Below are positions 360-19,746 of a stretch of DNA of 64,000 nt, in pieces. Source of the stretch: Devosia sp. A16. Its GTDB lineage: Bacteria; Pseudomonadota; Alphaproteobacteria; Rhizobiales; Devosiaceae. Below the pieces are notes generated by a model that worked only from the letters and a program-made list of their open reading frames with translations, did not search any database and had not been told where the DNA came from. The translations under genes were made by a program, and so were the position numbers. Every line of letters starts with the position of its first letter. Within the stretch, counting starts at the first letter, position 1. The stretch lies in contig NZ_CP012945.1 of NCBI RefSeq assembly GCF_001402915.1, positions 2,395,501-2,459,500 on the forward strand. The letters are read 5' to 3'.

Positions 360-391
360 GCCCTGATCCTTAAGTGAAACGCCCGCCTGCC

Positions 392-796: not shown

Positions 797-864
797 AACC
801 AGATGATTGTGGTTTGTCCTCGTCGGTGCAAGCGCCTAACTAAGCCGGATCAAGGAGCCGTCAA

Positions 865-1617: not shown

Positions 1618-1640
1618 TGGGGCCGCTCCCAGGGCGAGCA

Positions 1641-2513: not shown

Positions 2514-2557
2514 GTTCCCTCCGAGTCCGATGGCATGACAGTTGGACAGATTCTCGC

Positions 2558-2587
2558 TTGACGGTCGACATGAAACGTTTAACTAAT
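2558..2587 (+). promoter_or_regulatory. Promoter with LacI-type operator for the riboside operon
   Basis: A -35-like TTGACG (2558-2563) and a -10-like ACTAAT (2582-2587) are 18 bases apart. Between them and touching the -10 is the box TGAAACGTTTAA (2571-2582), a near-palindrome around AAACGTTT of the kind bound by LacI-family repressors. The same 12 bases, with the same flanking promoter elements, occur at 16722-16733 before the permease operon. The likely regulator is the LacI protein encoded at 10702-11718. Promoter assignment is by eye. Confidence 0.7.
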
Positions 2588-2667
2588 ATCGACCAGGACC
2601 TCAAGCGGGGATCGTAGCGAGGTCTCGGGAGAGTGCCGGCCCGCCGGCATCAACAGGGGAATACGTC

Positions 2668-3984
2668 ATGTGGAAAGTCGCCGTCGCCGCAGCGTCTGTG
2701 CTGATCGCTGTATCGTCCAACGCCCTGGCCAGGGAGCCGGTCACGTTGTGGTTCTGGGGCGCGCCGCCCAACCTGCAGGAAGCCTTTGAGAAGGTGCTGG
2801 TCGAGCCGTTCAACGCCTCGCAGGACCAGTATGAACTGCAGATGGATTACAATAACGACGTGGACAACAACGTCCGCGTCTCGGTGCTGGCCGGCGAGGG
2901 ACCGGATCTCGTCTACACCTCCGGCCCGTCCTACATCGCGCCGCTGGCCAAGGCCGGCGTGCTCGAGCCGCTCGAGGGCTATGCTGAAAAGTTCGGCTGG
3001 AACGACAAGCTGCTGAAGCCGGTGCTCGACACCTGCCAGCAGCTCGGTCACCTCTACTGCATGCCCCCATCGCTGATTTCCGACGGCATGTTCTACAACA
3101 AGGCGCTGCTCGCGGAAAAAGGCTGGGCCGTGCCCAAGACCCTCGAGGAAGCCGAGACCATCATGAAGGCCGCGCAGGCCGACGGGCTCTACGCCTCGGT
3201 CACCGGCAACAAGGGCTGGCAGCCGGTCAACGAGAACTACGCCTCGATCTTCATCAACAACATCGTCGGACCGAACAAGTTCTACGACATCCTGTCGACC
3301 GGCAAGGGCTGGGACTCGCCCGAGATGCAGAAGGCGATCGAGGAGTCGGCGCGCTGGTTCAAGGCCGGCTATCTCGGCGGCAAGGACTACTTCTCGCTCA
3401 ATTTCGACGAGTCGATCTCGCTGGTCAGCCAGAAGAAGTCGCCCTTCTTCTTTGCCCCCTCGATCGGCTTCCAATGGGCCACCAACTACTTCAAGGACGC
3501 AACGGCCGGTGATTTCGCCTTTGCGCCGATCCCGCAGCTCGACGCCAGCCAGCCCTACCCGATCTACGACATGGGCGTAGCCTTTACCCTGTCGATCAAC
3601 GCCAATTCCAAGGTCAAGGACGGCGCCGCCCTGGTGCTCGACCGCATCTTCTCGCCCGAGTTCGCGGCCGAGATGGCCAAGGTCTGGCCGGGCTACTGGG
3701 GCATTCCGCTCAAGCAGTTCCCGACTGATCCCGCGGCGACGGGTCTGACGGCGTCGTTCCTCAACGCGATGGCCGACATGACCGCCGCCGTCGACAAGGG
3801 TACCTTCGGCTTCAAGATCGGCACCTTCTTCCCGCCGGCCACCAGCCAGGTGATGTTCGAAGACATCGAGAGCGTCTGGCTCGACAAGATGAGCGTCGCC
3901 GACATGCTGAAGAAGGCCGAGACCACCTACGCCGACGAGAAGGCGCAAGGTCTGGTGCAGGAACTCCCCAAGCCGTCCCTCTAG
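2668..3984 (+). CDS. Sugar-type ABC transporter substrate-binding protein
   Basis: This 438-residue protein has a signal peptide of about 21 residues (VAVAAASVLIAVSSNALA), then TLWFWGAP, the usual start of family-1 extracellular solute-binding proteins. Later features fit: LAGEGPDLVYTSGPSYIAPLAKAG in two parts, GMFYNKALLAEKGW, and a C-terminal helical region. It would capture ligand in the periplasm and deliver it to MalFG-type permeases. It is the first gene of a seven-gene operon driven by the operator-bearing promoter upstream, and its RBS is AGGGGA. The matching permeases (14990-16694) and ATPase (11757-12836) are on the opposite strand in the convergent operon. The ligand is unknown; downstream enzymes point to a riboside or related glycoside. 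Confidence 0.9.
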   Translation: MWKVAVAAASVLIAVSSNALAREPVTLWFWGAPPNLQEAFEKVLVEPFNASQDQYELQMDYNNDVDNNVRVSVLAGEGPDLVYTSGPSYIAPLAKAGVLEPLEGYAEKFGWNDKLLKPVLDTCQQLGHLYCMPPSLISDGMFYNKALLAEKGWAVPKTLEEAETIMKAAQADGLYASVTGNKGWQPVNENYASIFINNIVGPNKFYDILSTGKGWDSPEMQKAIEESARWFKAGYLGGKDYFSLNFDESISLVSQKKSPFFFAPSIGFQWATNYFKDATAGDFAFAPIPQLDASQPYPIYDMGVAFTLSINANSKVKDGAALVLDRIFSPEFAAEMAKVWPGYWGIPLKQFPTDPAATGLTASFLNAMADMTAAVDKGTFGFKIGTFFPPATSQVMFEDIESVWLDKMSVADMLKKAETTYADEKAQGLVQELPKPSL

Positions 3985-3997
3985 TTGGCTTGGCTCC

Positions 3998-4032
3998 GAC
4001 GCGGACGGCCATCCTCCCCGGTCGTCCGCGTC
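3998..4032 (+). other. Stem-loop after the binding-protein gene
   Basis: GACGCGGACG (3998-4007) pairs perfectly with CGTCCGCGTC (4023-4032) across a 15-base loop. No T-run follows, so it is not a classical terminator. Placed directly after the binding-protein stop, it more likely stabilises that part of the mRNA or causes partial termination, so that binding protein exceeds the downstream enzymes. Confidence 0.55.
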
Positions 4033-4062
4033 CTCCTCCCGGCCTGTGGCGGCGGGAGATCG

Positions 4063-5223
4063 ATGATCAAGAGGTCTGTTGTGGAACTGTCCAATCCGAT
4101 GCGCGAGCAGGTCTTTGCCACGCCGGGCGCCCTGCTCGAGGGCTTTGACGCGCTGGAGCTGAATGCCCGGCTCGCCGTCGAAACCCCCGATATCTACCGC
4201 ACCCAGCGCGTCGTGCTTACCGGCAGCGGCGATTCCTGGTTCGCCGCCAAGGCCGCCGAGCTCGCCTTCTGGATCGACGCCCAGGTTGCCGCCGAAGTGC
4301 GCTCGCCGCTCGAGGCAGGGCGCTACCAGTCGCAGCACTTTCCGCGCCGCGAGCTCGAGACCACGCTGCTGGTGGCGCTCTCCAATTCCGGCGCTGCCGC
4401 GCGAGTCGCCGAAGCGGCGACGCTGTGGCGCGGCGCCGGCGCCAAAGTGCTGGCCGTCACCAAAAACGAGGCTGGTCGGCTGGCCGGCATTGCCGATCGC
4501 ACGCTGCTTCTGCCGGTGCCCGAGCTGCCGAACGCCCCAGGGGTCGGCCCGTATCTGTTCGCCGTCCTCGGCCTTGAGCTGCTTGCCATCCGCTTCGGCG
4601 AAGTGAAGCTGGCGATCACCATGGACGAGGCACAGGCCCTGCGTGCCGAACTCAAGTCGCTGCTGGCGAGGCTGGAGGGCGTGGTCGCCGACCTCGACGC
4701 GCCGGCGCTGGAGGTGGCCGCCGCGATCTCCGGCGGGCAGCTGGTGGAATTCGTCGGCGGCGGTCCCAACTTTGCCGTCGCCGAGTATGGCGCCGCCAAA
4801 CTGCTCGAAGCCTCGGGCCGCCATGCGCTGGCGCGCGACCTCGAGGAGTGGACGCACCTCAACTATTTCGACAACGCGCCCACCCGGATCGCGACAGTTC
4901 TGGTGGTGCCGGCCAACAGCCCCACCCAGGGTCGGGCGGTCGAGCTGATCGCCTATATGCATAAGCTTGGCCGCAGCCTCGTGGTGGTTGGCGGCGGCGA
5001 GGCCGCCGAGCTGGTGCAGCGTCTCGGCCATGCCGTCCTCGCCGTTCCGGCGATCGCTGAACGCTGGTCGCCGCTCTTCACCAGCATCGCCCCGGCATTG
5101 CTCGCCGCCCATCTCAGCGCCCTGGACGGCGCCGAGTATGGCCGCGGCGGCAAGGCACCATGGGACGATAGCCGCACCGCCGCCACCGTGCAGCAGAGCG
5201 CTATCTGGGAGCCGGGCAAATGA
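4063..5223 (+). CDS. Tandem SIS-domain protein (GlmS isomerase-like)
   Basis: The ATG at 4063 is chosen because GGGAG lies just upstream and the open frame before it is in the intergenic hairpin region; this gives 386 residues. Two SIS domains are visible: one at about residues 30-170 with VLTGSGDSWFAAKAAEL and ALSNSGAAARVAEAA, and a second at about 210-350 with VEFVGGGPNFAVAEYGAAKLLEASG. This layout matches the isomerase half of GlmS and the AgaS/FrlB-type deglycases and isomerases, without the glutaminase domain. Likely role is isomerisation or deamination of a phosphosugar released by the operon's other enzymes (inference). Its last four bases overlap the next gene (ATGA). Confidence 0.85.
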   Translation: MIKRSVVELSNPMREQVFATPGALLEGFDALELNARLAVETPDIYRTQRVVLTGSGDSWFAAKAAELAFWIDAQVAAEVRSPLEAGRYQSQHFPRRELETTLLVALSNSGAAARVAEAATLWRGAGAKVLAVTKNEAGRLAGIADRTLLLPVPELPNAPGVGPYLFAVLGLELLAIRFGEVKLAITMDEAQALRAELKSLLARLEGVVADLDAPALEVAAAISGGQLVEFVGGGPNFAVAEYGAAKLLEASGRHALARDLEEWTHLNYFDNAPTRIATVLVVPANSPTQGRAVELIAYMHKLGRSLVVVGGGEAAELVQRLGHAVLAVPAIAERWSPLFTSIAPALLAAHLSALDGAEYGRGGKAPWDDSRTAATVQQSAIWEPGK

Positions 5224-5624
5224 GCCTTTCCAACCACAAGCTCTCGACCGTAGCGAACGCGGCCTACGAGATCACCGTCACCGTGCGCGAGGCCGTCGCT
5301 GCCTCCGGCATCCGCGACGGATTGTGCGTGGTGTTCGTGCCGCACACCACCGCCGGCCTGTCGATCAGCTCGTTCTGGGACCCCAAGGGGCTCGAGGACG
5401 TGCACGACGACATCAACCGCCTGGTGCCGACACGCATCGACTTCAAGCACCAGTTCGACACCCCGCAGGATGCCGCCGGGCACGTCAAATCGGTGCTGGT
5501 CGGGGTCAGCCTGACGCTGATCATCGTCGACGGGGCGCCGCTGCTCGGCCACTCGCAGGGGATCTTCTTCAACGAGTTCGACGGGCCGCGACAGCGCCAG
5601 TTCTTCGTGAAGTGCCATGGCTGA
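5220..5624 (+). CDS. YjbQ/UPF0047 family protein
   Basis: The 134-residue single-domain protein matches UPF0047/YjbQ. The signatures are FVPHTTAGLSI near residue 45, DDINRLVP, and the C-terminal LLGHSQGIFFNEFDGPRQRQ. E. coli YjbQ has weak thiamine-phosphate synthase activity, so databases call members secondary thiamine-phosphate synthase, but the physiological role is unsettled. The conserved His residues form a pocket in known structures. It is translationally coupled to the SIS gene (ATGA overlap) and overlaps the kinase gene by 8 bases. Its position inside a sugar/nucleoside catabolic operon suggests it acts on a sugar-phosphate or thiamine-like intermediate, which is inference only. Confidence 0.9.
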   Translation: MSLSNHKLSTVANAAYEITVTVREAVAASGIRDGLCVVFVPHTTAGLSISSFWDPKGLEDVHDDINRLVPTRIDFKHQFDTPQDAAGHVKSVLVGVSLTLIIVDGAPLLGHSQGIFFNEFDGPRQRQFFVKCHG

Positions 5625-6540
5625 CGCTGCCGACATCATCGTCGGCGCCGTCCTCATGGACAATATCGTCTATGCCGACGGCACCCGGCGCGACGACATC
5701 CCGGGCGGTGCGGGCCTTTACGCGCTGGCCGGGGCGACGCTGTTCGGCGACGATGCGGTGCTGGTTACCGGCACCGGCCGCGACCTGCCGCTGACCTTCG
5801 GTCCCTGGCTCGATCGCAACGGCCTGTCGACACGTGGCTTGCGCTTCGCTGACGACCACGCGCCGCGCAACATCATGCGCTATATCGACGAGCGCACCCG
5901 CACCGAGGCGCCGGTCTATGGCGCCGATCACTTCCGGCGGATCGAGCCGACCGCCGGCGACATCGCCAGGGTGATTGCTGGGGCCCGCAGCCTTTTCATC
6001 TTCCGCAATCTCGACCCAACGTTCTGGGCTGAAACCCTGCCGCTGCTCGCCGCCCATCGCCCCCTCACCATGTGGGAAATCGCGCTCGACGCGTGCCTGC
6101 CCGAGAACCTCGCTCGGATCGAGCAACTGGCCCGCCAGGTCGAAGCGCTGTCGATCAACCTCGAGGAGGCGGCGCTGATCTACGGCGCCGCCGAGGAAGC
6201 AACGCTGATCGCCCGGCTCGCTGCCATCGGCACCGGCACGGTGTTCCTCAGGGCCGGTGCGCGCGGCAGCTTCGTCATCACCCGCGGAGCGGCCCGCTTC
6301 GTGCCCAGCCTGCCGGTTGCGCCGGTCGACGTCACCGGCGGCGGCAATGCCTATGGCGGCGCAGCCCTGGTGGGGCTGGCGCAAGGCCTCGACCCGGTGC
6401 GCGCCGGGGCCATGGGCACCGTGGCGGCGCGCCTCGCCATCTCACAATACGGCCCCCCCGAAGCGGGGTCCGCCACGACGCGCGCGACGGCTGCCGCCCT
6501 CGTTGCCGAACTCATGACTATGCTGGAGCAGACCGCATGA
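5617..6540 (+). CDS. PfkB/ribokinase-like carbohydrate kinase with atypical active-site motif
   Basis: This 307-residue protein has the ribokinase fold pattern: an N-terminal sugar-binding GGAGLYALAGATLFG (residues ~30-45) and a C-terminal PfkB motif. The usual DTTGAGD motif reads DVTGGGNAYGG (residues 238-248), placing Asn244 where the catalytic base Asp normally lies. The same GGGN variant occurs in a Mak32-like branch of the superfamily, as I recall, so this may be a defined subfamily with a different activity rather than a dead enzyme. Expected role would be phosphorylation of the ribose or sugar released by its neighbours. It overlaps the YjbQ gene by 8 bases and the nucleoside hydrolase gene by 4. 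Confidence 0.8.
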   Translation: MADAADIIVGAVLMDNIVYADGTRRDDIPGGAGLYALAGATLFGDDAVLVTGTGRDLPLTFGPWLDRNGLSTRGLRFADDHAPRNIMRYIDERTRTEAPVYGADHFRRIEPTAGDIARVIAGARSLFIFRNLDPTFWAETLPLLAAHRPLTMWEIALDACLPENLARIEQLARQVEALSINLEEAALIYGAAEEATLIARLAAIGTGTVFLRAGARGSFVITRGAARFVPSLPVAPVDVTGGGNAYGGAALVGLAQGLDPVRAGAMGTVAARLAISQYGPPEAGSATTRATAAALVAELMTMLEQTA

Positions 6541-7484
6541 AGAAGATCCTGATCGATACCGACCCGGGGATGGACGATACCCTCGCCATCATCCTGGCGA
6601 TCAAATCCAAGGCAGTGCAACTGCTCGGCATTTCCTCAGTGGCCGGCAACTACCCGATCGAGGTGACGACCCGGAACGCGCTCAAGACCGTCGAACTGCT
6701 CAAGCGTAGCGACATTCCGGTGGCGCGTGGCATGGGCAAGCCGCTGGCGCGGCCTCTGGCCAAGGATCCGTTCTCGCACGGCTCCGACGGCCAGGCCGAA
6801 ACCCACCTGCCCGAGCCGACGACGAAGCCGAGCGGCAAGCACGGCGTCGATCAGATCATCGACATGGTGCGGGCCAATCCCGGCGAGGTGACGGTCATTA
6901 CCCTGGGGCCGCTGACCAACCTCGCCATGGCCTTCATGAAGGAGCCGGACATAGTACCGTTGGTCAAGGAGGTGGTGGCGATCGCCGGCTCCTTCGGGCT
7001 CAACAAGTATGCTTTCGCCAACGCCACCGGCGACACGCCGCAGAGCGAGTGGAACGTCTTCGTCGATCCCGAGGCGGCGCGGCTGGTGTTCGAGTCCGGT
7101 GTGCCGGTGCGGGCCGTCGGCCTCGATGTCGCGACGCATTTCGACATCAATTTCACCGAGGAGCAACTGGCGACGCTCAAGGCCTCGGCCCGGCCCGAAG
7201 CCAATATCGTCGAGAAGATGGTCCGGTTCGTCCAGGGCCGTGGGTTCGAATCCTATTGCGTGCTGATCGACTCGATGGCCGTGGCAGCGGTGATCGACGA
7301 GAGCCTGATCGGCACCACCCGGGCGCGGGTCGGGGTCGAGACCAAGGGGGAGCTGACGCTGGGGCAGACCGTCGCCGACTTCCGCCATCATCACGGCTGG
7401 GCCCACCTGCCAGAGATCGAGGTCGCCTCGAGCGCCGACTATCGGCGCTTCCTCGACCTGGTGATGACGCTGGTGCTGGAGTAA
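6537..7484 (+). CDS. Inosine/uridine-preferring nucleoside hydrolase family protein
   Basis: The ATG at 6537 overlaps the kinase stop (ATGA), giving 315 residues. The hallmark DTDPGMDD calcium- and ribose-binding motif is at residues 7-14. Other family elements are LGISSVAGNY, VTVITLGPLTNLA, NVFVDPEAARLVFESG and the terminal Asp in VLIDSMAVA (Asp245). The residue before that Asp is Ile, where group I enzymes have the catalytic His, so base specificity may differ. The family hydrolyses the N-glycosidic bond of ribonucleosides to free ribose and base. It is cytosolic. It sits between the kinase and an ARH-family gene, which supports a pathway that cleaves ribosyl bonds. Confidence 0.92.
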   Translation: MKKILIDTDPGMDDTLAIILAIKSKAVQLLGISSVAGNYPIEVTTRNALKTVELLKRSDIPVARGMGKPLARPLAKDPFSHGSDGQAETHLPEPTTKPSGKHGVDQIIDMVRANPGEVTVITLGPLTNLAMAFMKEPDIVPLVKEVVAIAGSFGLNKYAFANATGDTPQSEWNVFVDPEAARLVFESGVPVRAVGLDVATHFDINFTEEQLATLKASARPEANIVEKMVRFVQGRGFESYCVLIDSMAVAAVIDESLIGTTRARVGVETKGELTLGQTVADFRHHHGWAHLPEIEVASSADYRRFLDLVMTLVLE

Positions 7485-7487
7485 CCG

Positions 7488-9548
7488 ATGGACCGCGCGA
7501 CCGAAGAAAAGATCTACGCCGGCGTCCTTGGCAAGATCCTCGGCGTCTATCACGGCCGGCCGGTCGAGGGCTGGTCATATGAGCGGATCATCGAGACGCA
7601 TGGCGAGGTGGATTACTTCGTAAATGGCAGAATGAACCTGCCGATCATGCTGCCCGACGACGATATCTCTGGCACCTTCGCCTTCTTCCGGGCGCTCGAG
7701 GACAACGGCTACCCCAAGCACCTCGATCCGCACACCGTCGGCAAGACCTGGCTCAACTACATCATCGAGGAGAAGACCATCCTGTGGTGGGGCGGCCTCG
7801 GGCGCTCCACCGAGCACACGGCATACCTGCATCTGAAGAACGGCATCAAGGCGCCGCTCACCGGTTCGCACCAGCTCAACGGCCCGTGGATCCCGGCGCA
7901 GATCGGCGCCCAGATCTTCATGGACGCCTTTGCGCTGGCCAACCCCGACGATCCGGATCGGGCGGCCCAGATGGTGCGTGCCGCCGCCTCTGTCAGCCAT
8001 GACGGCGTGGCGCTCGATGCGGCCGTGCTGCTCGGCACCATGGAGGCGATGGCGTTCTCGGAGCGGAGCGTCGACAAGCTGCTCGACGCCGGGCTCCGCT
8101 ACGTCAGCAACAACCAGCTGCTGAGCCTGGTCGAGCAGTTGCGCAACCAATGCGCCAAGACCGACGACTGGCACGAGGTGCGCGCCTGGATCGCCGGCAA
8201 CCACGGCTACGCCCATTATGACGGGCCGTGCCACATGATCCCCAACCACGCCATCGTGCTGATGGCCCTGATGATGGCCGGTGATGATTTCGGCCGCTCG
8301 CTGAAAATCGCCACCACTGCCGGTTGGGACACCGACTGCAATGCCGGCAATGTCGGCTGCCTCAACGGTGTGCGGCTCGGGCTTGCCGCCCTCAACCAGG
8401 GGCCCGACCTGCGCGGCCCGGTCAGCGACTTCATGTATGTGGTCACCGCCGACGGCGCCGCCGGCATCACCGACGCGGTGCAGCAGACCCGCGGCATCGT
8501 CGCGGCGGCCAATGCGCTCAACGATGAGCCGGCTCCTGCCGCCCGGCCGAAATATGGCTTCGACTATCCCGGCGCGACGCAGGGCTTTGCGCTCTGCCCG
8601 CGCCATGTCGGCCGGCAGGCCGCGCTCCGGCTCGGCAATGCAGGTTCGGGGCTGGCGGTCGAGCTCAGCGGCCTGTCGCTCGGCGTCACCGGTTCGGTGT
8701 CGACGCCGGTCTTCGTCGAACCGTTCGCAGCGCAGTCGAGCTTTGCCATGGTGGCGAGCCCGACGCTCTATCCGGGACAGACCGTGACCGCCCGGCTCGA
8801 TCGGCCGGCCGGCGTGAACGCGCGCCTCTACGCCTTGATCTATGATCGCGACGATGCCGTGCAGCGCATCGAGGGAGAATGGTCCGAAGCCGGCGATCTC
8901 AGCTGGACGGTGCCCGACACCAATGGCCTGCCGCTCTACCGGCTTGGCCTCGAGTTCGGTTCCGACAGTCGCTTCGATGGCACCGTTACGGTCAGATCCG
9001 TCGACTGGTCCGGCGCGCCGGTCGCCTATGAGACCAAGGGCATGCTGGTCAAATCGATCTGGAACCTCACCCCGTTCTGGACCCGCGCCTGGGTCAGTTC
9101 GGCCAAGCACTTCGCACCGGATTTCAAGTACACGCTGTGCTTCTCGCATCCATACGAGAACGGCGTCGCCACCACCGGCAGCCGCGACTGGGACAATTAC
9201 TCGGTCGCCAGTTCCCTCGACTACTCGATCAATGACGGCGCCGGCTTGGTGGCCCGGGCTCGCGGTCATCGCCGCTATTATGCCGGCATGCTGCGCGGCC
9301 GCGAGGCGCTGATCATCAGGCGTTATGACGATGAGGTTGAGGTGCTGTCGCGCGTTCCGGTAGAGGTCGGCGCCGAAGGCAAGCGCGACCTCAAACTGAC
9401 CGTGGCCGGCGACCGGCTGAGTCTGGTGGTCGATGGCCGCCCGGCCGGCGAGGCCACCGACGCCACCTTCAGCAGCGGCAGCGCCGGCTTCATCGTCGAG
9501 AAGGGGACCATCGTCGCCGATGGTTTCCTCGTTCACGCTGTGCACTAG
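7488..9548 (+). CDS. ADP-ribosylglycohydrolase (ARH)-family protein with C-terminal jelly-roll-like extension
   Basis: The 686-residue protein has an ARH/DraG-like domain over about residues 5-340. It shows the helix-rich N-terminus (KIYAGVLGKILGVYHGRPVEGW), the metal-site candidate PDDDISGTF (Asp57-59), and GWDTDCNAGN (279-288), matching the C-terminal Asp pair of the di-metal site. The remaining ~340 residues have no counterpart in classical ARH enzymes. Their last ~140 residues (DGAGLVARARGHRRYYAG, then SLVVDGRPAGEATDATFSSG) look like a concanavalin/LamG or DUF1080-type beta sandwich. It likely cleaves an N- or O-ribosyl or glycosyl bond. No signal peptide is present. Start is 3 bases after the hydrolase stop; a paralogue is at 12839-14986. 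Confidence 0.85.
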   Translation: MDRATEEKIYAGVLGKILGVYHGRPVEGWSYERIIETHGEVDYFVNGRMNLPIMLPDDDISGTFAFFRALEDNGYPKHLDPHTVGKTWLNYIIEEKTILWWGGLGRSTEHTAYLHLKNGIKAPLTGSHQLNGPWIPAQIGAQIFMDAFALANPDDPDRAAQMVRAAASVSHDGVALDAAVLLGTMEAMAFSERSVDKLLDAGLRYVSNNQLLSLVEQLRNQCAKTDDWHEVRAWIAGNHGYAHYDGPCHMIPNHAIVLMALMMAGDDFGRSLKIATTAGWDTDCNAGNVGCLNGVRLGLAALNQGPDLRGPVSDFMYVVTADGAAGITDAVQQTRGIVAAANALNDEPAPAARPKYGFDYPGATQGFALCPRHVGRQAALRLGNAGSGLAVELSGLSLGVTGSVSTPVFVEPFAAQSSFAMVASPTLYPGQTVTARLDRPAGVNARLYALIYDRDDAVQRIEGEWSEAGDLSWTVPDTNGLPLYRLGLEFGSDSRFDGTVTVRSVDWSGAPVAYETKGMLVKSIWNLTPFWTRAWVSSAKHFAPDFKYTLCFSHPYENGVATTGSRDWDNYSVASSLDYSINDGAGLVARARGHRRYYAGMLRGREALIIRRYDDEVEVLSRVPVEVGAEGKRDLKLTVAGDRLSLVVDGRPAGEATDATFSSGSAGFIVEKGTIVADGFLVHAVH

Positions 9549-9616
9549 TCAGGGCGCGCCAGCAGTCCTGGAGCCGACGCCTGGCGCCGGCTTCCCCTGT
9601 TTGAAGGAGTTACCCC

Positions 9617-10534
9617 ATGTCACGCGACGAGGTGGCGCGCCGCGCCGCCCTAAAGCAGATCCACGAGCGTTACACGTACTGGAACAACGTGCCGCATCGC
9701 GGCCTGATGGTGGAAGGCCGCCCGGCCATGACCCGCATCGACCCCGACAAGGTCGGCGACTTCGTCCTGGTGACGGTGCGTGATCCGCTGATCGCCTATG
9801 CCGGCGATCCGACCGCCCATATCGGACAGTACCTCGAGGGGGCTGAGCTGATCGGTGAGTCCGGTATGTTCACGTCGATATCGGGCACCTATGAGGGGGC
9901 GAGGATCACCGTCGTCTCGGGTGGCAGCGGCTCGTCGGAGGCCGAACTGCTGCTCTATGATTTCATGGAGTTCTCCAAGGCTCACACGTACCTGCGCGTC
10001 GGCGGCTCCGGCGGCATCGGCACCGATGTGAAGCCGGGCGACATCGTCGTTTCCTCGGGTGTGGTGCGCGAGGAAGGCATGACCCGCGCCTATGTCGATC
10101 GCGCCTTCCCGGCCGCCAGCCATTATGAAGTGGTGGCCGCCATGGCCCAGGCGGCAGATGAGCTCGGCGCCGACTATCACGTCGGCGTCACCCTGTCGGT
10201 CGACAGCGATTTCGCCGGCGTCGGCCGGCCCGGCGTCGGCGGCTACCTGCAGCCGTGGAACATCGAAATGCTGGCGACCTATAACCGCGCCGGCGTGCTC
10301 AACGGCGACCGGGAATCGGCGGCGGTGGTCACGCTCGCGGCGCTCTACGGCTTCCGCGGTGGTTCGGTGTGTTCGGTGGCCGACAATGTCATCACCAATG
10401 CCGAATTCAGCCACGGCGCCGGTCACGCCAAAGCCATCGACGTGGCGCTCAAGGGCTGCGCCCTTCTCGATCGGATGGACAGGAAGCGCACTGCCGGCGG
10501 CAAGAAATACTGGCTGCCTTCGATGGGGTGCTGA
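9617..10534 (+). CDS. Nucleoside phosphorylase (PNP/UDP family)
   Basis: The 305-residue protein starts at ATG 9617 behind a clear GAAGGAG. It has the trimeric/hexameric PNP_UDP_1 pattern: FVLVTVRDPLIAYA, ISGTYEGARITVVSGGSGSSEAE (split over the phosphate site), LRVGGSGGIGTDVKPGDIVVSSG, and NIEMLATYNRAG. These correspond to the phosphate-binding, base-binding and conserved nucleoside-contact segments of uridine or purine nucleoside phosphorylases. It would convert a nucleoside plus phosphate to base and ribose-1-phosphate. As the last gene of the operon, after a nucleoside hydrolase and an ARH-family protein, it supports nucleoside or riboside breakdown. Base specificity cannot be read safely. 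A 68-base gap separates it from the ARH gene. Confidence 0.9.
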   Translation: MSRDEVARRAALKQIHERYTYWNNVPHRGLMVEGRPAMTRIDPDKVGDFVLVTVRDPLIAYAGDPTAHIGQYLEGAELIGESGMFTSISGTYEGARITVVSGGSGSSEAELLLYDFMEFSKAHTYLRVGGSGGIGTDVKPGDIVVSSGVVREEGMTRAYVDRAFPAASHYEVVAAMAQAADELGADYHVGVTLSVDSDFAGVGRPGVGGYLQPWNIEMLATYNRAGVLNGDRESAAVVTLAALYGFRGGSVCSVADNVITNAEFSHGAGHAKAIDVALKGCALLDRMDRKRTAGGKKYWLPSMGC

Positions 10535-10571
10535 GCAGTTCGCGGCCCACCCCGCGGGACCGGTGGCTATG

Positions 10572-10672
10572 GACCCCCACCCTTGATCCCTCCCGTAAGG
10601 GGGAGGGAGACGTAAACTGAGATGCCGGTGTGAGGGTCTCCCTCCCCCTTGCGGGGGGCAGGGGTGGGGGTC
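10572..10672. repeat. Intergenic inverted repeat, family A
   Basis: GACCCCCACCC at the left end mirrors GGGTGGGGGTC at the right end. Inside, the CCTCCC/AGGGGGAGGGAGAC arm pairs with GTCTCCCTCCCCCTT. It fills the gap between two convergent operons, so it can also fold in both transcripts. A related copy is at 54511-54626. It has the look of a REP/BIME- or MITE-like element common between alphaproteobacterial genes. Confidence 0.75.
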
Positions 10673-10701
10673 AGCCCGCAGGGCGCCGGAGTGTCTGCTA
10701 G

Positions 10702-11718
10702 CTAGCTCCGCCCGATCTTGCGCCAGCCCCAGGAAACCGGGGCCGCGGCGACGCTCTGGCGCTTGATCAGCTCGACCCCGACCTTGAAATGGCGCACCGC
10801 TCGGGTCGGCTCGGCGATCCGGTCGAGCAGCAGGGTGAGCGCCACGGCCGCCATCTCCGAGACCGGCTGGCGCACTGTCGTCAGTTCCGGCTCGACGATC
10901 GAGGCCCAGGGGATGTCGTCGAAGCCGACGACCGACAGATCGGTGGGGACATGGATGCCGAGCTGGCGGGCGGCGCGTAGCACGCCGACCGCGATCAGGT
11001 CGTTGCCGCACATCACCGCGCTGACGTCCCGACGCTCCAGGGCGGCGCGGATGCGTTCGGGCAGGTCGATGGCAAACGGCGCCTTTTCCTCCCACATCAC
11101 GGTGGCGTGCCCGGCCAGCGCCTCAATGAAGCCGAGGCGCCGATCGTCCTTGCTGGGGAGCACGCTCGCCGCCGTCAACATGCCGATACGGGTGTGCCCC
11201 ATGTCGACCAGGTGCCGCGCCAGCAACTGGCCGCCCTCGTAGTCCTTGGTGGTGACGTTGTCGACGCTGAGGCTGGGTGTGCCAATCACCACGATGGGCA
11301 CCGAATAGTCCGAGCTGACCACCTCGTCGGGTCCCGCCGTCTGGCACCAGACCACCCCCTCGACGCCATGCTGCTCGAGCCGCCGGATCCCCTGCACCTC
11401 TTCGTCGGCATGGCCCGAGGTGTCGATCAGCACCACGGTGTAGCCGGCCTGCCGCGCGGCCCGTTCGAAGCTCTGCGCCAGCGCCGGGTAATAGGGGTTG
11501 TTGAGGTCGGGAAGCACCAGGCCCAGCGTCATGCTCTTGCCGGTGCGCACCGCCTGTGCCGAGCGGTTGGGACGATAGCCGAGCCGCTGCGCCACTTCGC
11601 GCACCCGGGCACGGACCTCTTCGCCGATCGTGCCGCCGCCGTTGAGGGCATACGACACCGCCGCGATGGAGACCTTGGCCTCCCGCGCCACGTCGCGGAT
11701 CGTCGCTGACTTTCTCAT
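10702..11718 (-). CDS. LacI-family transcriptional regulator of the riboside system
   Basis: The ATG at 11718 gives 338 residues; a TTG at 11736 is an alternative start. The N-terminal helix-turn-helix (TIRDVAREAKVSIAAVSYAL, then NG) is canonical LacI, including the VSxAL reading head and the hinge helix region. The rest is the periplasmic-binding-protein-like effector domain, with SMTLGLVLPDLNNPYY and DLSVVGFDDIPWA. It is the last gene of the permease-ARH-ATPase operon. It most likely binds the TGAAACGTTTAA boxes at 2571-2582 and 16722-16733 and releases them when its ligand, probably the imported compound or a breakdown product, accumulates. Autoregulation follows from its operon position. 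Confidence 0.93.
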   Translation of the reverse strand: MRKSATIRDVAREAKVSIAAVSYALNGGGTIGEEVRARVREVAQRLGYRPNRSAQAVRTGKSMTLGLVLPDLNNPYYPALAQSFERAARQAGYTVVLIDTSGHADEEVQGIRRLEQHGVEGVVWCQTAGPDEVVSSDYSVPIVVIGTPSLSVDNVTTKDYEGGQLLARHLVDMGHTRIGMLTAASVLPSKDDRRLGFIEALAGHATVMWEEKAPFAIDLPERIRAALERRDVSAVMCGNDLIAVGVLRAARQLGIHVPTDLSVVGFDDIPWASIVEPELTTVRQPVSEMAAVALTLLLDRIAEPTRAVRHFKVGVELIKRQSVAAAPVSWGWRKIGRS

Positions 11719-11756
11719 TGTCGGCGGGCGCCCCAATTTCCTGCCCCCAGCCAGTC

Positions 11757-12836
<1,080 letters not shown>

Positions 12837-12838
12837 GG

Positions 12839-14986
12839 TCAGCCTCCGATCCGGCGAACGCTGAGCCCGAGGGCCGGCACCGTTCCGCCTTCGATGAGGA
12901 ACCCTGCGCCCCCCGATAGGTAGGACGCATCCACCGCCTCGACGATCGGCTTGCCATTGATCGTGAGGCTGATCCGGTCTCCCACGGCGCTGACCTCGAA
13001 CCGTTGTCGGCTGTTTGGCACGAAGTCGAACGGCACCGAAGCGAGGATGTCGAGCTCTGCGTCCCGCCGGCGGACGATCGATGACTTGCCGTCATGCACC
13101 ACACCCGCATAGTAGCGGCGGTGGCCGCGGGCGCGCACCACCAGTCCCGCCATCTCATGCAGCTCGATCACCAGTTCCGACGCGATGGCATAGTCGGTCC
13201 AGTCGCGCGTGCCGAAGGTGATCACGCCGTTGCTGTCGGGATGCGACAGGGTGAAGGTGTTGTAGATGTCGGTCGCCCAGTGCTTGGCCGACGACACGAA
13301 CTGCTTGGTCCAGAACGTCGTGGTGTCCCAGGGCGTGAGACGCGGTGTCAGCTCCTTCGAGCTTCCGAACGTCAGATTCTCCGGCGCCCCGGTCCAGTCG
13401 AGCGAGATGATGGCGATCCGGCCCGACAGCCGGTGCGCGGCCGAGAGTTCGATGCCCAGCCGATGGATCGGCCGCCCACCCGTGTCGGGAACCTTGAAGG
13501 CGACCGGGTTGTCGCCCTCGGCGATCTCGATCCACTCGCCGTCGAGGCGGGCGAGCTGATCGGTCTCGTCGAAATAGTGGATGAAGAAGCGTGCCATCGG
13601 GTTGACCGCCTCGAAGCCGCGGATGGTGCCGGTGACGGTCTGCGTGGCGTAGAGCGTCGGGCTGGCGATCACCTCGAAATACGAGGTGTCCGACACGCCG
13701 CGCGGCTTGGGGTCTATGAAGGTGGGCACCGAAACTGCTCCGGTCACCCCCGCTGCCAACCCCTCGAAGCTCAGCTCCAGCCCGTTGGCTGCGCTTGACG
13801 TGTTGAGGTTGCCGACGCGGGTGATCGCCTGGCGTCCCTGGTGCAGCGGGCAGCGGGCAAAGCCCTGCACGGCGCCCGGAAACTCGAAGGCGAAGCGGCT
13901 TGCCGGTGCGGCGTAGCTTTCACCCTTGAGCTGCGCGGCGCTGCGCAGCACGCGGCGGGTCTCGATCACCGCATCGGTGACGCATTCGCCGCCATCGGCG
14001 CCCACCACATACATCAGGTCCGCTACCGGCCCGCGAAAGTCAGGACCGGTCTCGAGGCCCGCGAGCCCCAGGCGGATGCCGTTCAGGGCGCCAAGGTTGC
14101 CGGCGTTGCAATCGGTGTCCCAGCCCGAGGAGACGGCAATCTTGAGCCCCTTCTGGAAGTCGTCGCCACCCAGCAGGAACGAGGCGATCAGCAGCGCGTG
14201 GTTGGGCACCATCGGACAGTTGCCCGGGTAGCGTTCATAACCGTGGTTGGCGCCCAGCCAGTGGCGCACGGCGCGCCAGTCGTCGCCCGCCTTGGCGCAC
14301 TGCTCGCGCACATCGGCGATGACGCCGTTGAGCTCGTTGCTCCGCGAGTAGCGAAGGCCGAGGTCGAGCAGCTTGTCGATATCGCGCTCGTCATAGGCCG
14401 CCGCCTGCATGGCGGCGAGCAGACACGCCGCTTCCACTGCCACGCCGTCATGGCTCACCGAGCCCGCGGCGCGAGCCATGGCCGCCGCCCGGTCGGGGTC
14501 GGACGGGTTCACCATCGACCAGGTGTCGATGAAGATCTCGGCGCCGATCTGCTCGGCCATGCCCTTGCCGTTCATGGCGATCGAACCGCTGGCCGGGGCG
14601 GCGATGCCGTGCTTGAGTCGGAGATAGGCCGTGTGCTCGGTCGAGCGGCCGAGACCGCCCCACCAGAGCACCGTCTTGTCCTCGACGATGTAATTGAGCC
14701 AGGTGTCACCGATCGCCTTGGCGGAGATGTCGGCGGGAAAGCCGTTATCCTCGAGCGCCCGATAGAACAGGAACGTGCCCGAGATATCGTCGTCGGGGAC
14801 GATCAGCGGCCAGTTCACCCGATGGTTCACATAGTCTTCGACTTCCCCGAAGGTGTCGCGAATGGCCTCGTAGGTCCAGCCTTCGACCGCACGCCCGAGA
14901 TAGACGCCGATCAGCTTGCCGAGGACGCCCGCATAGGTCCTTTCGGCGACGGCGGTGAGCGGGGTGGGGGAGACACGGACGTTCAT
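12839..14986 (-). CDS. Second ADP-ribosylglycohydrolase (ARH)-family protein, paralogue of 7488-9548
   Basis: The 715-residue protein is collinear with the ARH protein at 7488-9548. Shared landmarks are TYAGVLGKLIGVYLGRAVEG, PDDDISGTF, WWGGLGRSTEHTAYL, SHDGVA, GWDTDCNAGN and a C-terminal RARGHRRYYAGVV region. It carries both metal-site Asp clusters, so it should be active. The C-terminal half again resembles a beta-sandwich domain and is about 30 residues longer than in the paralogue. It lies between permease and ATPase genes of the importer operon, which ties the enzyme to the imported substrate. Two diverged copies on convergent operons suggest different bond or anomer specificity, or action at successive steps. 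No signal peptide is present. Confidence 0.85.
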   Translation of the reverse strand: MNVRVSPTPLTAVAERTYAGVLGKLIGVYLGRAVEGWTYEAIRDTFGEVEDYVNHRVNWPLIVPDDDISGTFLFYRALEDNGFPADISAKAIGDTWLNYIVEDKTVLWWGGLGRSTEHTAYLRLKHGIAAPASGSIAMNGKGMAEQIGAEIFIDTWSMVNPSDPDRAAAMARAAGSVSHDGVAVEAACLLAAMQAAAYDERDIDKLLDLGLRYSRSNELNGVIADVREQCAKAGDDWRAVRHWLGANHGYERYPGNCPMVPNHALLIASFLLGGDDFQKGLKIAVSSGWDTDCNAGNLGALNGIRLGLAGLETGPDFRGPVADLMYVVGADGGECVTDAVIETRRVLRSAAQLKGESYAAPASRFAFEFPGAVQGFARCPLHQGRQAITRVGNLNTSSAANGLELSFEGLAAGVTGAVSVPTFIDPKPRGVSDTSYFEVIASPTLYATQTVTGTIRGFEAVNPMARFFIHYFDETDQLARLDGEWIEIAEGDNPVAFKVPDTGGRPIHRLGIELSAAHRLSGRIAIISLDWTGAPENLTFGSSKELTPRLTPWDTTTFWTKQFVSSAKHWATDIYNTFTLSHPDSNGVITFGTRDWTDYAIASELVIELHEMAGLVVRARGHRRYYAGVVHDGKSSIVRRRDAELDILASVPFDFVPNSRQRFEVSAVGDRISLTINGKPIVEAVDASYLSGGAGFLIEGGTVPALGLSVRRIGG

Positions 14987-14989
14987 GGA

Positions 14990-15823
14990 CTATCCTTTGA
15001 CGGCGCCGGAGGTCATGCCGGAGATGAAGAAGCGCTGCAGCAGCAGGAAGAAGACGATGATCGGGGCGACCAGGATGAAGGCACCGGCCATCAGCGCGCC
15101 CTGGTCGGTGGCGTAGGTGCCGTTCATCGACAGGTAGCCCAGCGTCATGGTGATGTTCGATCGCCCCTTCTGGAAGGTCGAGGTGATCAGGAACTCGTTC
15201 CAGGAATTGAGGAACACGATGATTGCCACGGTGATCAGGCCCGGGCGCATCAGCGGCAGGATGACGTGCAGGAACGTCTGCAGCGGATTGGCCCCATCCA
15301 TAAATGCGGCATCGTCGACATCGTGCGGGATCGAGATGACGTAGGCGCGCAACAAAAAGATCGAGATCGGCAGGTTGATGGCGGCGAGGATCAGCGACGT
15401 CGCAGCGAAATTCCCCACGATCCCCAGCTTGGCGTAGACGAAGTAGAGCGGGAACAGGAACAGCTGGATCGGTACCGTCGTCGCGCAGAGGAAGTAGATG
15501 GTGATCAGCTGCCAGCCGGGGATCTTGCGCCGCGCCAGGGCGAAGGCGGCGAGCGATGCAAAGGCCAGCGTGATCAGCGTCGTGGTGCCGCTCAGGAGCA
15601 GCGAGTTGACGATGCCGATCGAAAACTTGCCGCCGTTCCAGGCCCGGACGAAGTTGTCGAGGCTGAAGCTTTCGGGCAGGCTCAGCGGGTTGGCGACGAT
15701 CGCCGTATGCGGCTTGAAGGCGTTGAGCGCCACCAGCCCCAGCGGCAGCAGCGCCACCAGCACCGCGCCGATGAGGAAGACGTTGGCGAGCGTGCGTGAA
15801 ACCGGGGATGCGCTGGTCTGCAT
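14990..15823 (-). CDS. Carbohydrate ABC transporter permease (MalG-like)
   Basis: The 277-residue inner-membrane protein has six predicted membrane segments beginning with LANVFLIGAVLVALLPLGLV. The conserved EAA-type cytoplasmic loop appears as DVDDAAFMDGANPLQTFLHV, followed by ILPLMRPGL, the contact site for the ATPase. It is the partner of the upstream MalF-like permease, 1 base away, and together they form the channel for the binding protein encoded at 2668-3984. The next gene, 3 bases on, is an ARH-family enzyme. The start ATG is preceded by GAGG within the end of the upstream gene, suggesting coupled translation. Confidence 0.93.
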   Translation of the reverse strand: MQTSASPVSRTLANVFLIGAVLVALLPLGLVALNAFKPHTAIVANPLSLPESFSLDNFVRAWNGGKFSIGIVNSLLLSGTTTLITLAFASLAAFALARRKIPGWQLITIYFLCATTVPIQLFLFPLYFVYAKLGIVGNFAATSLILAAINLPISIFLLRAYVISIPHDVDDAAFMDGANPLQTFLHVILPLMRPGLITVAIIVFLNSWNEFLITSTFQKGRSNITMTLGYLSMNGTYATDQGALMAGAFILVAPIIVFFLLLQRFFISGMTSGAVKG

Positions 15824-15824
15824 G

Positions 15825-16694
15825 TCAGGCCTCGAGGCTGGCGCGGCTCATGCGCACATAGACGATCGATGCGATGAGCCCGAAAAAGCTCATCACCAAA
15901 GCCACCGCTGCCGCCTTGCCGACCTGGAAGCTGGTGAAGGCGAACTTGTAGGCATAGGTCGAGAGCATCTCGGTGGCGCGCGCCGGCCCACCCTGAGTGA
16001 TCAGGTAGATGTAATCGAAGGTGAGGAACGAGAAGATCGTGACCAGCACCAGCATCAGCCCCAGCGTGGGCAGGATGTTCGGCAACGTCACGTTCCAGAA
16101 CACCTGCCAGCCATTGGCGCCCTCAAGGAACGCCGCCTCGAGCTGCTCCTCCGGCGTCTGCCGCATGGCGGCGAAGAACACCACGGTGAGATAGCCCCAG
16201 AAATGCCAGATATCGACGCCGGCCACCGCATAGAGCGCGGTCGACGGCTCGGTCAGCGGGCTCGACATCGGGATGAAATTCTTGGAGACGAACCCCAAGA
16301 GGCCCGAAACCGGTGACAGGATGATATTCTGCCAGATCACCGCGTTGGCCACCGGGGCGAGCACATAGGGCAACAGGAAGATCACCTGGTAGACCGCACC
16401 GGATTTGCGCCGGCTCAGCAGCAGCGATGCCGCGACGAGGGCAATGGCCATCGGGATAGTGAGGAAGATCAGCGCCCACTGGATATTGTTGGTGATCGCC
16501 GCCCAGAACACGTTGTCGGCGAACAGCGCCTCAAAGTTGTCGAGTCCGATAAAGCTGGGAGCGGAGACGCCGTCCCAGCGGGAGAACGACGCGCCGAAGG
16601 TCAGCAGCGCCGGCAGCAACACGATGGCCACGCTGAGCAGCAGGGCCGGCGTGACGAACAGCACGTGATAGGCTCTCTGTGACAACGGCTTCAA
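15825..16694 (-). CDS. Carbohydrate ABC transporter permease (MalF-like), TTG start
   Basis: The TTG at 16694 is preferred: GGAGGG (16709-16704) lies 9 bases upstream, and the promoter and operator at 16717-16747 lie inside the longer frame that would start at ATG 16778. The resulting 289-residue protein begins with KPLSQRAYHVLFVTPALLL, a typical MalF-like first segment, and has about six membrane spans. The EAA loop reads EEQLEAAFLEGANGWQVF, followed by NVTLPNILPTLG. It is the first gene of the minus-strand importer operon. The short leader, about 16-20 bases from the inferred transcript start, fits the chosen start codon. Confidence 0.9.
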   Translation of the reverse strand: MKPLSQRAYHVLFVTPALLLSVAIVLLPALLTFGASFSRWDGVSAPSFIGLDNFEALFADNVFWAAITNNIQWALIFLTIPMAIALVAASLLLSRRKSGAVYQVIFLLPYVLAPVANAVIWQNIILSPVSGLLGFVSKNFIPMSSPLTEPSTALYAVAGVDIWHFWGYLTVVFFAAMRQTPEEQLEAAFLEGANGWQVFWNVTLPNILPTLGLMLVLVTIFSFLTFDYIYLITQGGPARATEMLSTYAYKFAFTSFQVGKAAAVALVMSFFGLIASIVYVRMSRASLEA

Positions 16695-16716
16695 CGTCCG
16701 CAACCCTCCGTTGTCA

Positions 16717-16747
16717 ATTAGTGAAACGTTTAATGTAGCGATGTCAA
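16717..16747 (-). promoter_or_regulatory. Promoter with LacI-type operator for the permease/ARH operon
   Basis: On the minus strand, TTGACA (16747-16742) and ACTAAT (16722-16717) are separated by 19 bases. The forward-strand box TGAAACGTTTAA (16722-16733) lies between them. The identical 12-base box and identical ACTAAT hexamer occur at 2571-2587. Repressor bound here would cover the -10 region. The arrangement strongly suggests one LacI protein controlling both convergent operons. Confidence 0.72.
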
Positions 16748-16784
16748 GTGAGCTTGCGGTGCTATATTCCACCTGCAATGGGCG

Positions 16785-17369: not shown

Positions 17370-17400
17370 GGCGTCAACAAGGCACTTCTGGGTGACCGGG

Positions 17401-18816: not shown

Positions 18817-18925
18817 GGCGGGGGAAGATAGCCCCGGGCCGGCATGGCGCAAGGGCGAACTTGCCCGCTACCGGTCGCTATGCGACAAGCGGCGCCAACG
18901 AGACATTGCTTACGGGAGCACGACG

Positions 18926-19738: not shown

Positions 19739-19746
19739 CCTGTCCC

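What the first reader, a model, noticed from the sequence alone, without database searches (positions are those of the whole stretch)
2668..16694. Two convergent operons encode an ABC importer with two ARH-family enzymes, nucleoside hydrolase, nucleoside phosphorylase, PfkB-like kinase, SIS protein and YjbQ
The binding protein is on the plus strand, and its only plausible permeases and ATPase are on the minus strand. Both operons also encode large ADP-ribosylglycohydrolase-family proteins plus enzymes that split and process ribosides. Established family activities suggest import of a riboside-like or ADP-ribosyl-derived compound, cleavage of its glycosidic bond, and phosphorylation or isomerisation of the sugar. 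I know of no described pathway with this exact set. The substrate is inference.
Basis: partly seen in the sequence, partly recalled or inferred. Interest (0 to 1): 0.85.

Follow-up and report, generated by a model that had tools for sequence, protein, structure and literature searches.

The report
Co-regulated riboside import and breakdown genes
A soil bacterium carries a twelve-gene set that appears to import an unidentified ribose-containing compound and break it down with unusual relatives of known ribose-cutting enzymes; much the same set occurs in a very distant bacterium, so it is probably a real, undescribed pathway.

Summary
Window 2668-16694 (a Devosia genome) has two convergent operons: plus, binding protein, SIS, YjbQ, PfkB, nucleoside hydrolase (NH), ARH1 and a uridine-phosphorylase-like protein (UP); minus, two permeases, ARH2, ATPase and LacI. 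They look like one regulon: a LacI-type operator, TBAAACGTTTMA, occurs exactly twice in the 5.03-Mb genome, once before each operon. The twelve-gene set recurs in Mesorhizobium and Pleomorphomonas, and ten of the twelve recur as one run in a Tissierellia MAG, followed by a nucleoside-deoxyribosyltransferase-like protein and a purine nucleoside phosphorylase. Best reading: import and cytosolic hydrolysis of an N-riboside or ribofuranoside. UP lacks two of three phosphate-site arginines of uridine phosphorylase, so it is more likely a nucleosidase. PfkB has GGGN for GAGD in 9 of 9 module members, so 'kinase' is unsafe. NH lost its leaving-group histidine. The beta-rich half of ARH1 resembles CBM66, a levan-binding module. 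The same UP subfamily sits with a different, short ARH in six of nine clusters of a second type. The substrate is unproven. I found no description of the system in the open-licence library that I could search.

The parts
2571..2582 (.). LacI-type operator TGAAACGTTTAA of the plus-strand operon, just downstream of a TTGACG hexamer
   Evidence: one of only two genome sites; recurs before the binding-protein gene in L031, L032, L033, L034
2668..3984 (+). solute-binding protein, signal-like N-terminus (by eye), CUT1 type
   Evidence: Pfam SBP_bac_1 61.9 bits; 45-97% in L031-L035
4063..5223 (+). two-domain SIS protein, GlmS/NagB-II-like; Lys/Glu and His of the GlmS-type isomerase site conserved
   Evidence: start chosen at the conserved MIKRS
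5220..5624 (+). YjbQ (UPF0047) protein, function unknown
   Evidence: Pfam UPF0047 119.5 bits, NCBIfam TIGR00149 above cut-off
5617..6540 (+). PfkB-fold protein with GGGN in place of the catalytic GAGD motif
   Evidence: Pfam PfkB; alignments; motif check
6537..7484 (+). IU-type nucleoside hydrolase, DTDPGMDD intact, 'LIDS' in place of the 'HDP' motif
   Evidence: Pfam IU_nuc_hydro 280.5 bits
7488..9548 (+). ARH1: ADP-ribosylglycohydrolase-family domain (residues 12-304) plus a C-terminal half predicted as beta-sandwich, resembling CBM66
   Evidence: Pfam ADP_ribosyl_GH 162.7 bits; metal-site Asp motifs kept; model and Foldseek
9617..10534 (+). uridine-phosphorylase-like protein of a 'DRE' subfamily lacking phosphate-site arginines; probable nucleosidase
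10702..11718 (-). LacI-family regulator, last gene of the minus operon
   Evidence: Pfam LacI/Peripla_BP_3; best NCBIfam match an RbsR model at 232.8 bits, below its cut-off of 382
11757..12836 (-). ABC ATPase, MalK/UgpC type
   Evidence: UgpC subfamily 472 bits, cut-off 432
12839..14986 (-). ARH2, paralogue of ARH1 aligned over its whole length
   Evidence: Pfam ADP_ribosyl_GH 166.7 bits
14990..15823 (-). ABC permease (MalG position)
   Evidence: Pfam BPD_transp_1 66.9 bits
15825..16694 (-). ABC permease (MalF/UgpA position)
   Evidence: Pfam BPD_transp_1 47.3 bits; TTG start at 16694 lies downstream of the operator
16722..16733 (.). second LacI-type operator, before the minus-strand operon
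   Evidence: recurs in L031, L033, L034, L071

Best explanation
One LacI-controlled regulon imports and degrades a small N-riboside or ribofuranoside. Without ligand, LacI sits on the two TBAAACGTTTMA operators and shuts both operons (inferred from operator position). The binding protein delivers the compound to a CUT1 ABC importer (family-level inference). Inside the cell, ARH1 and ARH2, which show no signal sequence by eye, cut furanosidic ribose bonds with a two-metal ARH site, helped by a CBM66-like furanose-binding domain (inferred). The nucleoside hydrolase and the UP-like protein cut the other anomer or later N-ribosides by hydrolysis, not phosphorolysis (inferred from lost phosphate ligands). 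The GlmS-like SIS protein then isomerises the sugar phosphate or removes an amine from it (inferred). The roles of the GGGN PfkB protein and of YjbQ are open. Shown by sequence: gene content, one operator pair, co-conservation across two phyla, altered catalytic motifs. Not shown: substrate, any activity, step order.
For: Operator before both operons and nowhere else in the genome. Twelve-gene set in three further Hyphomicrobiales species with complete loci (L031, L033, L034) and ten genes in one run in a Tissierellia MAG (L035), with both ARH paralogues kept: eight rows form one clade (100/100) and each Tissierellia copy falls beside its own orthologues (88/81 and 94/87). In L035 the run continues into a nucleoside-deoxyribosyltransferase-like protein and a purine nucleoside phosphorylase (343.7 bits, cut-off 218). 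Second cluster type: the same UP subfamily with a purine-deaminase-like amidohydrolase, a ribokinase-like PfkB with normal GAGD and a creatininase-family protein, and a short ARH in 6 of the 9 clusters not cut on that side; a ribokinase there fits release of free ribose, i.e. hydrolysis. A PfkB protein at 290.8 bits of the ribokinase model (cut-off 299.65) lies between two ARHs in Deinococcus. Foldseek best match of the ARH1 model: CBM66, E 5.8e-8, TM 0.73 on the target.
Against: No activity or ligand is known for any member. The binding protein and importer are of a type that mostly carries saccharides, and the nearest NCBIfam models of the binding protein are for chitin or other carbohydrates, far below cut-off. 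NH, UP and PfkB each lack a residue central to their family's usual reaction, so family-based inference is weak exactly here; those residue roles are recalled, not from a call. The smaller variant (PfkB, SIS, YjbQ, UP with a different importer: L058, L059, L085) has no intact ARH next to it, so ARH is not essential to the core. The ARH1 model is of low mean confidence (pLDDT 57.5; residues 14-144 and 300-366 under 50), the match list does not say which residues of it matched, and a second structural aligner was switched off. L035 is a MAG contig placed in Tissierellia by its record title; I did not test it for misbinning. Its ARH rows are long branches, one with odd composition, so their place in the tree is less sure. 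L035 shows no operator of this kind.
Confidence: 0.6

Rival explanations
1. The substrate is a guanidino riboside (for example creatine riboside, creatinine riboside or ribosyl-arginine): ARH cleaves the ribose-guanidine bond, as ARH1 and DraG do in ADP-ribosyl-arginine, and the rest process ribose and the guanidino compound.
For: Recalled chemistry of ARH1/DraG; the second cluster type has a creatininase-family gene in 9 of 9 clusters that reach that far and an amidohydrolase of the purine-deaminase group in 9 of 9 clusters that reach that far, beside the same UP subfamily and often a short ARH.
Against: No creatininase, creatinase, arginase-like or agmatinase-like gene is among the window's twelve. 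Creatininase-fold proteins do many reactions; the best models for the one scanned (MftE 95.4 bits, creatininase 86.4) are far below cut-off. The one paper search on creatine riboside listed no bacterial pathway among the 12 papers shown.
Confidence: 0.12
2. It is a salvage or clean-up route for damaged purine nucleosides (ring-opened formamidopyrimidine or oxidised nucleosides), whose glycosylamine bond anomerises, so that hydrolases for both anomers and an imine-handling SIS enzyme are needed.
For: The three related small-module loci carry a 5-formyl-THF cyclo-ligase-like protein nearby (L058, L059, L085); second-type clusters carry an amidohydrolase with matches to 5'-deoxyadenosine and 8-oxoguanine deaminase models and a creatininase-fold protein, the fold of ArfB FAPy deformylase (19.2 bits, cut-off 180).
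Against: The window's cluster has neither gene; all these NCBIfam matches are below curated cut-offs. A CUT1 importer with a dedicated LacI fits nutrition better than repair.
Confidence: 0.08
3. It is an ordinary disaccharide or oligosaccharide importer operon in which ARH acts as a general intracellular glycosidase and NH/UP-like proteins have left nucleoside chemistry.
For: CUT1 importer; CBM66 is (recalled) a fructan-binding module; related loci, as far as I mapped them, hold LacI, importer and one or two ARHs without NH, SIS, YjbQ or UP (L042, L056, L057, L064-L067); NH and UP have altered active sites.
Against: NH keeps its DTDPGMDD metal motif; L035 adds an above-cut-off purine nucleoside phosphorylase and a deoxyribosyltransferase-like gene to the same run; a near-cut-off ribokinase accompanies ARHs in Deinococcus, and a ribokinase-like PfkB the second cluster type.
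Confidence: 0.15
4. It belongs to thiamine-precursor metabolism: YjbQ (secondary thiamine-phosphate synthase), a COG0212-like protein in relatives and an NMT1/THI5-like neighbour.
For: YjbQ model name; COG0212 listed as 'not a 5-FCL enzyme; involved in thiamine salvage' in PMC3223725 (passages seen); NMT1/THI5 gene at 1641-2513.
Against: The NMT1/THI5 gene was found only in Devosia L031 and L032, not in the fetched stretches of L033-L035; no Rfam family, so no TPP riboswitch, reaches its gathering score in window 1-20000; it does not explain ARH, NH or SIS.
Confidence: 0.04

Closest known systems
Bacterial ribonucleoside hydrolase systems (RihA/B/C, UriH)
   Same: Same NH family (157-205 bits for the window's NH); hydrolysis of ribosides
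   Different: Far below equivalog cut-offs (382-459); leaving-group His replaced; with ARH pair, CUT1 importer, SIS, YjbQ
Ribose-utilisation (rus) loci of Bacteroides, which I recall as combining ribokinases, nucleoside hydrolases and in some variants ADP-ribosylglycohydrolases
   Same: A table in PMC10434189 (passage seen) lists for the B. thetaiotaomicron BT2804 locus a ribokinase, TonB-dependent receptor, SusD-family protein and nucleoside hydrolase; ARH in variants is recalled only
   Different: The rus paper itself was not held. SusC/D-type uptake instead of an ABC importer; no SIS/YjbQ/UP set in that passage
ADP-ribosylglycohydrolases DraG/ARH1/ARH3
   Same: Same Pfam domain; DD and DxD of the metal site kept
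   Different: xDDDIS and WDTDCNAGN instead of TDDT and DTDT-type motifs (recalled; similar ones seen in short ARHs); fused to about 340 residues predicted as beta-sandwich; in an importer operon
Fructosamine-type pathways (FrlB SIS deglycase with FrlD PfkB kinase)
   Same: SIS plus PfkB pair; GlmS-like isomerase site; the PfkB relative in L058 matches the fructoselysine 6-kinase model weakly (34.9 bits, cut-off 247)
   Different: The window's own SIS and PfkB do not match these models at E<=1e-3; PfkB lacks the catalytic Asp
Uridine phosphorylase (NP-I family)
   Same: Fold and closest solved relatives (S. pyogenes UP 3qpb)
   Different: Two phosphate-site arginines missing; E-M-E-type motif changed to D-R-E in all 7 members of alignment A1

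Membership tests
CUT1 carbohydrate ABC importer | SBP_bac_1 binding protein, two BPD_transp_1 permeases, MalK-type ATPase with OB/TOBE domains | tested here: met
CUT1 carbohydrate ABC importer | Transports a carbohydrate | not testable with these tools
   no binding data
ADP-ribosylglycohydrolase family (Pfam PF03747) | Domain above gathering score | tested here: met
   162.7 and 166.7 bits, cut-off 26.2
ADP-ribosylglycohydrolase family (Pfam PF03747) | Two Asp-rich metal-binding motifs | tested here: met
   DDD and DTD invariant in the 8 rows of A2; DD and DxD shared with the 5 short ARHs and 2 other long ones aligned; residue roles recalled
ADP-ribosylglycohydrolase family (Pfam PF03747) | Hydrolysis of ADP-ribosyl conjugates | not testable with these tools
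   no assay
Uridine/purine nucleoside phosphorylase (functional) | Phosphate-site arginines (R30, R48', R91 in E. coli UP, recalled) | tested here: not met
   Only the R91 equivalent is kept (LRVGG); no Arg aligned at the other two in the 3 PDB alignments shown
PfkB sugar kinase (functional) | GAGD motif with catalytic Asp | tested here: not met
   GGGN in 9 of 9 module members (window, L031-L035, L058, L059, L085); GAGD in 5 of 5 other PfkB proteins aligned
IU nucleoside hydrolase | DxDPGxDD metal/ribose motif | tested here: met
   DTDPGMDD in window, L031-L034; DCDPGMDD in L035
IU nucleoside hydrolase | Leaving-group His of the HDP motif (recalled role) | tested here: not met
   LIDS in window, L031-L034; IIDC in L035; His in the 3 PDB relatives shown
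GlmS-type SIS isomerase/deaminase | Glu and His of the isomerase site (recalled roles) | tested here: met
   aligned in 3hba, 8eol, 3tbf; kept in window and all 7 relatives aligned
CBM66 | Fold | tested here: inconclusive
Fructosamine (Frl/Fra) pathway | FrlB/FrlD equivalog models | tested here: not met
   no match of the window's SIS or PfkB to these models at E<=1e-3; a relative matches weakly, far below cut-off

The most novel reading that the evidence does not exclude
A previously undescribed catabolic module for a non-canonical riboside, in which four classical families (PfkB, NP-I phosphorylase, nucleoside hydrolase, ARH) have together shifted their active sites. The paired ARH proteins with CBM66-like domains would be a new group of intracellular furanoside hydrolases, and the GGGN 'kinase', the DRE 'phosphorylase' and YjbQ would catalyse steps not known for their families.
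Probability: 0.35. Interest if true: 0.78.

Novelty: new variant of a known kind. Interest (0 to 1): 0.62.

Why it matters
Long ARH-domain proteins of this kind recur beside importer genes in rhizobia, Devosia, Deinococcus and a Bacillota MAG, and where those records are annotated they are called only ADP-ribosylglycohydrolase family proteins. If they are furanoside hydrolases, a group of sugar-use loci gets a function. The cluster also gives YjbQ (a widespread protein without a settled role, as I recall) and a PfkB group without its catalytic Asp a defined pathway in which to be tested. The two-site regulon makes the inducer, and so the substrate, directly screenable with a reporter.

Tried and rejected
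ADP-ribose as substrate: none of the twelve genes is a NUDIX or phosphatase gene and the importer is saccharide-type; not pursued further. Fructosamine pathway (SIS + PfkB): no match of the window's proteins to those models. Sampling for more members with the UP-subfamily profile: Alphaproteobacteria 1 of 385 genomes (own only, E<=1e-60); Pseudomonadota 1 of 279 (own only, E<=1e-50); class of the Tissierellia MAG 1 of 291 (itself, E<=1e-55); its phylum 3 of 329 (E<=1e-50). Two of these last three showed no DRE motif and no other cluster gene nearby, one of them with the ordinary GDPDRV motif, and were dropped. AlphaFold of ARH1 with 8 rows was poor (mean pLDDT 57.5), so active-site geometry was not used; the UP model (68.6) served only for fold. 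Promoter scan of 2500-17000: 1 site, 1.4 expected in shuffles, on the plus strand beside the second operator and so not the minus operon's promoter; the promoters are judged by eye from TTGAC boxes upstream of the operators. Terminator scan gave 9 against 6.0 expected, uninformative. No AAACGTTT site in L058, L059 or L085, and no palindrome by my criterion in the five L035 stretches tested, so operator conservation is shown only within the close loci. Rfam found nothing in window 1-20000 at gathering scores. Ten paper searches (open-licence PMC only): seven on the gene set or its parts together, three on YjbQ, COG0212 and creatine riboside; none listed a description of the gene set. I saw listings, plus passages of PMC3223725 and PMC10434189.


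Full report
What is there. Two convergent operons fill 2668-16694. Plus strand: binding protein 2668-3984, SIS 4063-5223, YjbQ 5220-5624, PfkB 5617-6540, NH 6537-7484, ARH1 7488-9548, UP-like 9617-10534. Minus strand, in order of transcription: permease 16694-15825, permease 15823-14990, ARH2 14986-12839, ATPase 12836-11757, LacI 11718-10702. Neighbours overlap or lie 1-3 bases apart, except gaps of 78 bases after the binding protein, 68 before the UP-like gene and 38 before lacI. All twelve pass Pfam gathering scores.

One regulon. The upstream regions of both operons in window, L031, L033 and L034 (8 of 8 regions) share a TTGAC box followed by AAACGTTT. The pattern TBAAACGTTTMA occurs at 2571-2582 and 16722-16733 in the window (0 in 100 shuffles) and nowhere else in the 5.03-Mb genome. 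Because the pattern was derived from these sites, what counts is its exclusivity and its presence at both operons in the other species. The encoded LacI protein is the obvious candidate regulator; its best model is an RbsR model, below cut-off.

Conservation. In Mesorhizobium BR1-1-16 and Pleomorphomonas carboxyditropha all twelve genes recur in the same order and orientation at 59-89% identity, while the window's flanking genes were not found in the fetched flanks. A Tissierellia MAG (L035, 48.5% GC against 66.5% in the window) holds binding protein, two permeases, two ARHs, PfkB, UP, SIS, YjbQ and NH in one direction over 4.5-16.4 kb of the locus, in a different order. A tree of 31 ARH rows puts the eight module ARHs in one clade (100/100), split into an ARH1 side and an ARH2 side, each with one Tissierellia member (88/81 and 94/87, moderate; the two are long branches and one has odd composition). 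If that split is right, two distinct ARHs have been kept together for long. The distribution is patchy: the UP subfamily is in 3 of 19 genomes of the genus; a fourth, 82% complete, shows part of the minus operon on a 6.3-kb contig (L071). It is in 8 of 297 genomes of the order and 7 of 28 of the family of G324, most of these with the other cluster types below. Horizontal transfer is the likely cause (inference).

Two related cluster types. A smaller module (L058, L059, and plasmid pRL1 of R. leguminosarum, L085) has UP, YjbQ, SIS and PfkB with another CUT1 importer and, nearby, a 5-formyl-THF cyclo-ligase-like gene, without intact ARH beside it. L085 keeps a short ARH2-like remnant (14% of the length), a NH that reads in two frames, and an open long/short ARH pair with its own importer about 12 kb further. 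A second type (L060-L062, L099-L104, L123; ten loci) has the same UP subfamily with another importer, a ribokinase-like PfkB (GAGD in the four aligned) and a creatininase-family gene. Family models were run on two of the amidohydrolases, two kinases, two short ARHs, one creatininase-family protein and one binding protein; the rest were assigned by tblastn. An amidohydrolase of the purine-deaminase group is present in 9 of 9 of L060-L062 and L099-L104; L123 is cut before that side. The creatininase-family gene is in 9 of 9 loci that reach that far (L104 does not). A short ARH is present in 6 of those 9 (not found in L060, L099, L100). So ARH and this UP subfamily come together in two different architectures. 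As a rough yardstick, P0006 finds four ARH places in the 5-Mb own genome.

Active sites. UP-like: aligned with three solved uridine phosphorylases, the GDPxR arginine and the HRExT arginine are absent, LRVG is kept, and the E-M-E-type motif becomes D-R-E; D-R-E is invariant in the 7 members of A1, including two of the second type. The residue roles are recalled. Loss of phosphate ligands, together with a ribokinase-like protein in the second cluster type, points to hydrolysis. PfkB: GGGN in 9 of 9 module members, GAGD in the 5 others aligned. NH: the DPGMDD motif kept, the His of the HDP motif replaced by Ile (also 'LIDS' in L085). SIS: Glu and His of the GlmS-type site kept. ARH: xDDDIS and WDTDCNAGN, the Asp pairs kept. 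C-terminal half of ARH1: predicted as beta-rich; Foldseek's best match of the model is CBM66 of B. subtilis (E 5.8e-8, TM 0.73 by target), with lectin-like and laminin-G domains and levanases further down. The listing does not give the matched range; since the ARH half is helical I take it to be in the beta half, whose residues 561-686 are modelled at 55-89 pLDDT per block of ten. A second aligner could not be run.

Function. The strongest pointers to ribosides are the NH family, the additional purine nucleoside phosphorylase (343.7 bits, cut-off 218) and deoxyribosyltransferase-like gene directly after NH in L035, ribokinase-like kinases next to ARHs in Deinococcus and near those of R. leguminosarum, and a relative of the SIS protein beside a Bmp/PnrA nucleoside-type importer in Mesorhizobium huakuii. 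The CUT1 importer and CBM66-like domain point to a furanosidic, sugar-like ligand. The best common reading is a ribofuranoside or N-riboside, hydrolysed in the cytosol. I cannot name it. Guanidino ribosides and damaged nucleosides are the most interesting specific guesses, and both rest on neighbour genes of related clusters, not of this one.

Known or new. I found no description of this set in ten searches of an open-licence library (seven of them on the gene set or its parts together). The recalled Bacteroides rus loci are the nearest functional parallel; their main paper was not held, but a table in PMC10434189 lists ribokinase and nucleoside hydrolase together at BT2804 (passage). All parts are known families; the combination, the shared operator and the shifted active sites are what is new.

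Noticed in passing
1641-2513 (minus): NMT1/THI5-like protein divergent from the binding-protein operon, found in Devosia L031/L032 but not in the fetched parts of L033-L035
   Followed up: partly
865-1617 (+), 16785-17369 (-), 17401-18852 (-): SRAP peptidase, hemerythrin-domain protein and FAD-linked oxidase flank the cluster; ordinary neighbours
   Followed up: no
L064 and L065 (own genome C1:1167000-1186000 and C1:2872000-2891000): Two more long ARHs in this genome, each near a LacI gene and CUT1-like permeases: a broader ARH-importer group
   Followed up: partly
L055 6713-11082: Deinococcus aetherius plasmid: a near-cut-off ribokinase lies between two ARH genes behind an importer
   Followed up: partly
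L060-L062, L099-L104, L123: Cluster for which I know no description: purine-deaminase-like amidohydrolase, phosphonate/polyamine-type importer, DRE-type UP, ribokinase-like PfkB, often a short ARH, creatininase-family protein
   Followed up: partly
L087 6925-14635: Mesorhizobium huakuii pMHb: PfkB, SIS, BtpA/SgcQ and a Bmp/PnrA ABC importer in one run, probably another nucleoside-type route
   Followed up: partly
L106 1480-2205 (own genome C1:4957604-4958188): 5-formyl-THF cyclo-ligase-like gene directly after ABC permease and ATPase genes
   Followed up: no
L058 11621-13051: Amidohydrolase close to the ErtD hydantoin-5-propionate amidohydrolase model (498.7 bits, cut-off 600) near the small module
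   Followed up: no
L037 (Armatimonadetes bacterium Uphvl-Ar1): Long ARH relative whose mapped neighbours look like ABC-exporter genes (by tblastn and by eye), not a CUT1 importer
   Followed up: no
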